In this document: one piece after another, positions 4,577 to 6,427 of the stretch
How the letters are laid out: every line of letters begins with the position of its first letter
Numbering within the stretch: position 1 is the stretch's first letter
DNA from: a virus
Strand: one strand, 5' to 3'
IMG/VR virus record: IMGVR_UViG_3300013101_000135
Coordinates: 1-20,043 of that record
Length of the DNA: 20,043 nucleotides
The notes under the pieces: generated by a model
What the model saw: only the letters and a program-made list of their open reading frames with translations
What the model was told of the DNA's origin: nothing
Databases searched by the model: none
Made by a program: the position numbers and the translations under genes

Positions 4577-4652
4577 GGGGGTATAGCTCAGCTGGTAGAG
4601 CACCGTCCCTTTAAGTCGGTGGTCCAGGGTTCAAACCCCTGTGCCCTCACCA
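4577..4652 (+). tRNA. tRNA-Lys(TTT)-like, with unusual C33 and a mismatched anticodon stem
   Basis: A full cloverleaf can be drawn. The acceptor GGGGGTA (4577-4583) pairs with TGCCCTC (4642-4648) using two wobbles; the D arm is GCTC/GAGC; the T arm is CAGGG/CCCTG around TTCAAAC; and a discriminator A is followed by encoded CCA (4650-4652). The anticodon loop reads CCTTTAA (4608-4614), giving anticodon TTT (Lys), but position 33 is C instead of the near-universal T. The anticodon stem also has a T-T mismatch (4606 with 4616). A usual phage version would read CTTTTAA with GACGG. The gene may therefore be decaying, or be an odd functional form. Confidence 0.8.
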
Positions 4653-6354: not shown

Positions 6355-6427
6355 GGGCTGGTAGCTAAGCGGTAAAGCACGACGCTCATAACGTCGCGAC
6401 GCGGGGGTTCGAATCCCTCTCAGCCCA
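6355..6427 (+). tRNA. tRNA with anticodon CAT (Met, elongator type, or Ile2)
   Basis: The cloverleaf is complete: acceptor GGGCTGG (6355-6361) with TCAGCCC (6420-6426), D stem GCT/AGC, anticodon stem CGACG/CGTCG around loop CTCATAA (anticodon CAT at 6387-6389, T33 present), and T arm GGGGG/CCCTC around TTCGAAT. The paired first base argues against an initiator tRNA. Whether it is Met or lysidine-modified Ile2 cannot be decided by eye. After the discriminator A the sequence is TCA, not CCA, so the host must add the CCA end. It begins one base after the ThyX stop. Confidence 0.93.

What the first reader, a model, noticed from the sequence alone, without database searches (positions are those of the whole stretch)
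4577..4652. tRNA-Lys with C33 and a T-T mismatch in the anticodon stem
The loop is CCTTTAA where tRNA-Lys(TTT) normally has CTTTTAA; U33 is near-universal because it forms the U-turn. The 30-40 pair is T-T. All other arms pair well and CCA is encoded. The gene may be decaying, altered to resist an anticodon nuclease that cuts tRNA-Lys (such as PrrC), or a sequencing error. The evasion idea is speculative but testable.
Basis: partly seen in the sequence, partly recalled or inferred. Interest (0 to 1): 0.55.

Follow-up and report, generated by a model that had tools for sequence, protein, structure and literature searches.

The report
Phage lysine tRNA with odd anticodon arm
A bacterial virus carries an intact lysine transfer RNA gene that breaks two near-universal rules in the arm that reads the code; both oddities recur in unrelated viruses and are very rare in bacteria, so they look like a virus habit rather than decay or error.

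Summary
In detail: tRNA-Lys(UUU) at 4577-4652 has C33 (4609) and a U30.U40 mismatch (4606/4616). It lies on a phage contig binned with a metagenome-assembled bacterium. The rest of the cloverleaf is intact and scores like the neighbouring tRNA-Met (61.5 vs 62.8 bits).

Neither oddity is unique. C33 occurs in 43 of 1301 other distinct tRNA genes on the phage loci examined, across most isotypes. A matched pattern found none in 117 bacterial assemblies apart from this contig, against 316 U33 matches. C33 tRNAs have no more stem mismatches than U33 tRNAs, which argues against decay. U30.U40 is the only mismatch seen at that pair among 90 distinct phage tRNA-Lys genes whose neighbouring pairs were fixed (11 of 90). 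The exact C33 plus U.U core recurs in two other phages whose tRNAs are only 70-75% alike.

I read this as a working, phage-type tRNA-Lys with a remodelled anticodon arm. Resistance to host tRNA-cutting defences is a published hypothesis and fits the positions changed. However, C33 is not lysine-specific, and no PrrC- or AriB-like gene was found in the co-binned genome. Relaxed constraint is nearly as likely.

The parts
4577..4652 (+). tRNA-Lys(UUU) gene with encoded CCA
   Evidence: ARAGORN, Rfam 61.5 bits, sequence
4603..4619 (+). anticodon arm 27-43, CCGTC-CCTTTAA-GTCGG
   Evidence: read from the sequence; arm drawn by ARAGORN
4609..4609 (+). C at position 33, where nearly all tRNAs have U
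   Evidence: sequence; 43 of 1301 other phage tRNAs share C33
4606..4606 (+). T30, 5' side of the U30.U40 mismatch
   Evidence: sequence; recurrent in phage tRNA-Lys
4616..4616 (+). T40, 3' side of the U30.U40 mismatch
   Evidence: sequence; recurrent in phage tRNA-Lys
4610..4612 (+). anticodon TTT
   Evidence: ARAGORN
6355..6427 (+). tRNA-Met(CAT), ordinary loop with U33; with the tRNA-Lys the only tRNA found in the 110 kb contig of this phage

Best explanation
This is a genuine and probably working phage tRNA-Lys(UUU) whose anticodon arm has changes that phage tRNAs repeatedly show and bacterial tRNAs very rarely do: C33 and, in tRNA-Lys with G29-C41 and C31-G39, a U30.U40 mismatch. Shown: it is intact; each change recurs in unrelated phages; both are absent or very rare in the bacterial assemblies searched; C33 does not go with decay. 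Inferred: it is charged with lysine (UUU anticodon, A73) and reads AAA/AAG during infection. Its arm differs from the tRNA-Lys of bacteria related to the co-binned genome at 27, 29-31, 33, 39-41 and 43, which includes the bonds cut by known tRNA-Lys-directed defences (33-34 by PrrC, 40-41 by AriB). It would then serve as a substitute that such nucleases cut poorly while host tRNA is being destroyed.
For: Intact cloverleaf and normal score. Same C33 plus U.U core in two other phages with different acceptor and T stems. U.U is the only mismatch at 30-40 in 90 distinct phage tRNA-Lys with fixed neighbours: U.U 11, A-U 2, U-A 0. 29 distinct U33 tRNA-Lys with the same U.U core. C33 in 43 of 1301 phage tRNAs against none in 117 bacterial assemblies apart from this contig, with 316 U33 matches. 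No excess of stem mismatches in C33 tRNAs. AriB cuts U36AAUC/A41 and U39A abolishes cutting (PMC12409363 section 22), while this tRNA has G39 U40 C41. PrrC cuts 3' to U33 (PMC2610378 passages). Phage tRNA-Lys rescues phages from PrrC170 (PMC11555353 passages).
Against: C33 is spread over most isotypes, so it is not a lysine-specific answer. No PF13166 hit in the co-binned genome, 1 of 42 assemblies of its phylum over the cut-off; no PF14491 hit in the co-binned genome. The host is not proven. 72 of 109 sampled phage tRNA-Lys keep U39, the AriB-sensitive base. In cellular assemblies 13 of 80 stretches found by a scan of 84,980 genomes hold a whole C33 tRNA-Lys, so C33 is rare there, not absent. 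The contrast for the U.U core alone is weak: 2 of 109 phage against 0 of 384 assemblies, P 0.049.
Confidence: 0.45

Rival explanations
1. Relaxed constraint: phage tRNAs are extra copies that only have to work passably for one infection, so U33C and a mild U.U mismatch are tolerated and drift in without being selected. The tRNA still functions and helps to meet a high lysine demand.
For: C33 is spread over most isotypes. U.U also occurs at 28-42 and 30-40 in other phage isotypes. Lysine is 8.8% of codons in 20 window ORFs against 3.8% in a rough sample of 28 open frames of the co-binned genome.
Against: If drift made the mismatch, other mismatches and A-U or U-A pairs should be at least as common at 30-40; they are not. 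C33 tRNAs keep their stems as well as U33 tRNAs. C33 tRNAs fall together in the same loci slightly more than chance (18 pairs against 9.2, P 0.024).
Confidence: 0.4
2. Decaying tRNA gene on its way to a pseudogene.
For: Two unusual positions in one arm.
Against: All other pairs are intact and the score matches the tRNA-Met. The same two changes occur together in three phages. Stem mismatches are no commoner in C33 tRNAs: P 0.39 for other isotypes, 0.63 for Lys(UUU).
Confidence: 0.08
3. Sequencing or assembly error at 4609 or 4616.
For: The window and the identical IMG/VR contig may share the same reads.
Against: L007 and L356 carry the same core on other contigs. C33 also occurs in named phage records, 8 of 149 tRNAs read.
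Confidence: 0.03
4. Shifted loop: U34 plays the part of U33 and UUA (35-37) becomes the anticodon, making a suppressor of UAA stops.
For: With C33, the first uridine of the loop is U34, and UUA would follow it (sequence).
Against: A one-base shift breaks most pairs of the arm (sequence). The 20 window ORFs counted end in TAA 7, TAG 4 and TGA 9 times, so UAA is in ordinary use as a stop.
Confidence: 0.02

Closest known systems
Phage tRNAs with anticodon-loop changes proposed to resist host anticodon nucleases (van den Berg et al. 2023, PMC10264068; results section read)
   Same: phage-encoded tRNA whose loop differs from the usual one next to a known cleavage bond
   Different: that work treats mycobacteriophage and enterobacterial phage tRNAs; its main text does not use U33, C33 or position 33, and for coliphage tRNA-Lys it points to tRNA repair
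T5 tRNA-Lys(UUU), resistant to AriB of PARIS (PMC12409363, passages and section 22)
   Same: phage tRNA-Lys(UUU) changed at 39 and 41 in the 3' side of the anticodon stem
   Different: T5 has A39 and C41; here G39, U40, C41 with a U.U mismatch and C33; resistance is not tested here
Phage tRNA-Lys that rescues phages from PrrC170 (PMC11555353, passages)
   Same: tRNA-Lys supplied by a phage against a tRNA-Lys nuclease
   Different: I did not see those tRNA sequences; the paper stresses supply as well as sequence
tRNA-Lys of named phages with U30.U40: Microbacterium phage Magritte (UUU), Rhodococcus phage Weasels2 and Streptomyces phage LilMartin (CUU), Virus Rctr197k (UUU)
   Same: U30.U40 mismatch closed by C31-G39
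   Different: they keep U33

Membership tests
tRNA-Lys(UUU) | cloverleaf with family score over the gathering cut-off | tested here: met
   61.5 bits against a cut-off of 29
tRNA-Lys(UUU) | anticodon UUU, A73 | tested here: met
   role of A73 recalled
tRNA-Lys(UUU) | charged by LysRS and reads AAA/AAG | not testable with these tools
   needs an assay
ordinary cellular tRNA-Lys | U33 | tested here: not met
   C at 4609
ordinary cellular tRNA-Lys | paired 30-40 | tested here: not met
   T.T
nuclease-resistant phage tRNA | encoded by a phage | tested here: met
   terminase, portal and head genes on the contig
nuclease-resistant phage tRNA | differs from host tRNA at a known cleavage site | tested here: inconclusive
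   differs from tRNA-Lys of assemblies related to the co-binned genome, but the host is not proven and this genome's own tRNA-Lys(UUU) was not seen
nuclease-resistant phage tRNA | host has a matching nuclease | tested here: inconclusive
   no PF13166 or PF14491 hit in an 87% complete genome; other nucleases not searched
nuclease-resistant phage tRNA | resists cleavage | not testable with these tools
   needs an assay
tRNA pseudogene | several broken stems or low family score | tested here: not met
   one mismatch only; score as for the tRNA-Met

The most novel reading that the evidence does not exclude
Phages as a group carry tRNAs that break the U33 rule (about 3% of genes here, across most isotypes), plus a U30.U40 mismatch in tRNA-Lys, as a general protection against enzymes that recognise or cut the anticodon arm, and such tRNAs still translate well enough with C33.
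Probability: 0.3. Interest if true: 0.7.

Novelty: new variant of a known kind. Interest (0 to 1): 0.42.

Why it matters
U33 is taught as nearly invariant because it makes the U-turn that presents the anticodon. If phages repeatedly use C33 and a stem U.U in otherwise intact tRNAs, these are natural test molecules for what U33 really does, and for how tRNA-cutting defences recognise their targets. The prediction is simple to test with transcripts of the natural tRNAs.

Tried and rejected
Wrong pattern: one search used four N instead of three; none of its 8 loci gave a tRNA; it was repeated correctly. Free folding of the 76-mer (z -1.56) did not return the cloverleaf and decided nothing. No relative of the window among 50,697 phage records by megablast; tRNA-only matches in the rows listed were 75-84% identical in phages and 80.5% in plasmids. 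ThyX relatives gave one C33 tRNA-Lys, that of the same phage. L356's tRNA had no match in the phage records; matches of L007, L008 and L117 tRNAs led only to the named phages read. 16S rRNA was not found in the co-binned genome, so its name stays unknown. PrrC/RloC and AriB families in that genome: none. Shifted-loop UAA suppressor: rejected on pairing and stop usage. Codon compensation: AAA share 0.54 in the window, 0.52 in the co-binned genome, no shift. A figure printed for the U.U excess assumes equal mismatch types and independent lineages; it is not used.

Full report
What is there. The window is contig C37 of a metagenome-assembled genome (3.6 Mb, 492 contigs, 86.6% complete, 7% contamination). 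It is phage DNA: terminase, portal, major head protein, ThyX, endolysin, exonuclease and a DprA-like protein are recognised. An IMG/VR contig of 109,973 bases is identical to it over the 14,350 bases compared. Searched with the tRNA family, that contig has two tRNAs, this tRNA-Lys and a tRNA-Met. The tRNA-Lys lies between two ORFs on the same strand, 33 bases after one stop and 20 bases before the next in-frame ATG, so it is probably cut from a common transcript (inference).

The observation. Positions: C27 C28 G29 T30 C31, loop C32 C33 T34 T35 T36 A37 A38, G39 T40 C41 G42 G43. C33 is at 4609, T30 at 4606, T40 at 4616. The tRNA scores 61.5 bits against 62.8 for the tRNA-Met nearby.

Is C33 unusual? 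A scan of viral contigs for GGTAGAGCA-N5-CCTTTAA gave 16 stretches. 13 are tRNA-Lys(UUU) with C33; one (L005) looks like a tRNA interrupted after the loop; two are not tRNAs. The same pattern in one genome for each of 84,980 species gave 80 stretches, of which 13 hold a complete tRNA-Lys with C33 (13 distinct sequences, one locus with two copies). Three further stretches (L163, L170, L199) look like the 5' half of a tRNA. Beyond lysine, on the viral loci held, 43 of 1301 distinct tRNAs other than Lys(UUU) have C33 (the two loci of the window's phage left out). They cover most isotypes: for example Val 7 of 34, Glu 4 of 62, Leu 2 of 158, and none of 44 Cys, 36 Trp, 34 Asp or 32 Phe. Some loci were chosen because they hold a C33 tRNA-Lys: there the count is 5 of 57, elsewhere 38 of 1244. 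As a cellular control, a pattern fixing D arm, variable loop and T loop found C33 in 1 of 117 assemblies, the window's own contig, and U33 in 114 of 117 with 316 matches (my hand sum of the table). The identical pattern on the viral loci, leaving out anticodon TTT, gives 2 C33 and 31 U33 distinct (Fisher 0.009). In a small direct sample of cellular loci, 2 of 95 distinct non-Lys tRNAs have C33, both on loci chosen for a C33 tRNA-Lys (L200, L217). In stretches of six named phage records, 8 of 149 tRNAs have C33: six in Virus Rctr197k (an enrichment genome), one each in Vibrio phage Luma and Synechococcus phage S-CBWM1, none in Forrest, Weasels2 or Magritte.

Is it decay? Unpaired stem positions in ARAGORN structures: C33 tRNAs mean 0.93 (n 43), U33 tRNAs 1.08 (n 1254), P 0.39; within tRNA-Lys(UUU) 0.75 (n 16) against 0.97 (n 215), P 0.63. 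So C33 does not go with loose stems. C33 tRNAs fall together in the same loci a little more than expected (18 pairs against 9.2, P 0.024; loci with two or more 9, P 0.095).

The U.U mismatch. Scans with the core fixed: C33 with U30.U40 gave 7 stretches, 3 of them tRNA-Lys (window phage, L007, L356), 70-75% identical overall and different in acceptor and T stems. U33 with U30.U40 gave 58 stretches, 38 of them tRNA-Lys, 29 distinct. C33 with A30-U40 gave 4 stretches, none a tRNA. The 32 distinct tRNA-Lys with the core fall in 11 groups at 80% identity, so the distinct sequences are not all independent. Other phage isotypes have it too, 9 of 1269. Named examples are Magritte tRNA-Lys(UUU), Weasels2 and LilMartin tRNA-Lys(CUU), Rctr197k tRNA-Lys(UUU) and Luma tRNA-Asn. 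In 385 assemblies the Lys core matched in two: the window itself and G119, where ARAGORN finds no tRNA. The direct comparison, 2 of 109 phage against 0 of 384 assemblies, gives P 0.049, so the cellular rarity of the mismatch is suggestive, not firm.

What it does. The tRNA has the lysine anticodon and A73, so charging is likely (identity elements recalled). I recall older work in which C33 in suppressor tRNAs was tolerated; it was not read here. Assemblies related to the co-binned genome have tRNA-Lys arms TCTGA-CTTTTAA-TCAGA. That contains the U36AAUC/A41 site cut by AriB of PARIS, where U39A abolishes and A41C reduces cutting (PMC12409363, section 22). The phage tRNA has G39, U40, C41. PrrC cuts 3' to U33, at the 33-34 bond (PMC2610378, passages), and the phage tRNA has C33. 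LshCas13a prefers tRNAs with uridine-rich anticodons such as Lys(UUU) (PMC11042736, passages). So the changes lie where known tRNA-Lys nucleases act. Against this, the co-binned genome has no PF13166 (PrrC/RloC; family link recalled) hit and no PF14491 (AriB-type; link recalled) hit, and 1 of 42 assemblies of its phylum passes the PF13166 cut-off. The host is not proven, C33 is not a lysine matter, and 72 of 109 sampled phage tRNA-Lys keep U39 (A31-U39). Relaxed constraint explains C33 about as well; it explains the exclusive U.U less well. AAA share of lysine codons is about the same in window and co-binned genome (0.54 and 0.52), while lysine itself is commoner in the window (8.8% against 3.8%, a rough count on open frames).

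Known or new. The idea that phage tRNAs resist tRNA-cutting defences by anticodon-loop changes is published (PMC10264068, results section), and has support for some tRNA-Lys (PMC11555353 and PMC12409363, parts read). The main text of PMC10264068 does not use U33, C33 or position 33. Searches of the held library for phage tRNA with position 33, and phage-encoded tRNAs with U33, returned no paper; broader searches listed nothing on this by title or start of abstract. So the phage-wide C33 count and the U30.U40 tRNA-Lys class may be new, within a library that lacks most subscription papers.

Verdict. Real, intact, not unique, probably working. The mechanism is open between selection by tRNA-cutting defences and relaxed constraint.

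Noticed in passing
L194 and L197 (Omnitrophota assemblies): Two assemblies named Omnitrophota carry the same tRNA-Lys(UUU) with C33 and a perfect CCACC/GGTGG stem; could be chromosomal or phage.
   Followed up: no
L005, L163, L170, L199: 5' halves of a tRNA with a CCTTTAA loop that then run into other sequence, perhaps attachment-site remnants of integrated elements.
   Followed up: no
L566 (Virus Rctr197k 170000-197311): 6 of 41 tRNAs read there have C33, in Leu, Val, Arg and Met, and its tRNA-Lys(UUU) has U30.U40.
   Followed up: partly
L561 (Streptomyces phage Forrest 80000-110000): Two RNA ligase genes and a polynucleotide kinase gene lie among its tRNA genes, and all 14 tRNAs read have U33: repair genes rather than loop changes.
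   Followed up: no
L076, L423, L564 and L565: tRNA-Ile(GAU) with loop CCGATAA or CCGATTA (C33) recurs in unrelated phages, two of them named.
   Followed up: no
window 6355-6427: tRNA-Met(CAT) starts two bases after the ThyX stop codon; whether it is elongator Met or Ile(CAU) was not tested.
   Followed up: no
plasmid records: 17 Clostridioides difficile plasmid records match the window tRNA; the rows listed match over its full length at 80.5% identity and have no annotated tRNA gene there.
   Followed up: no
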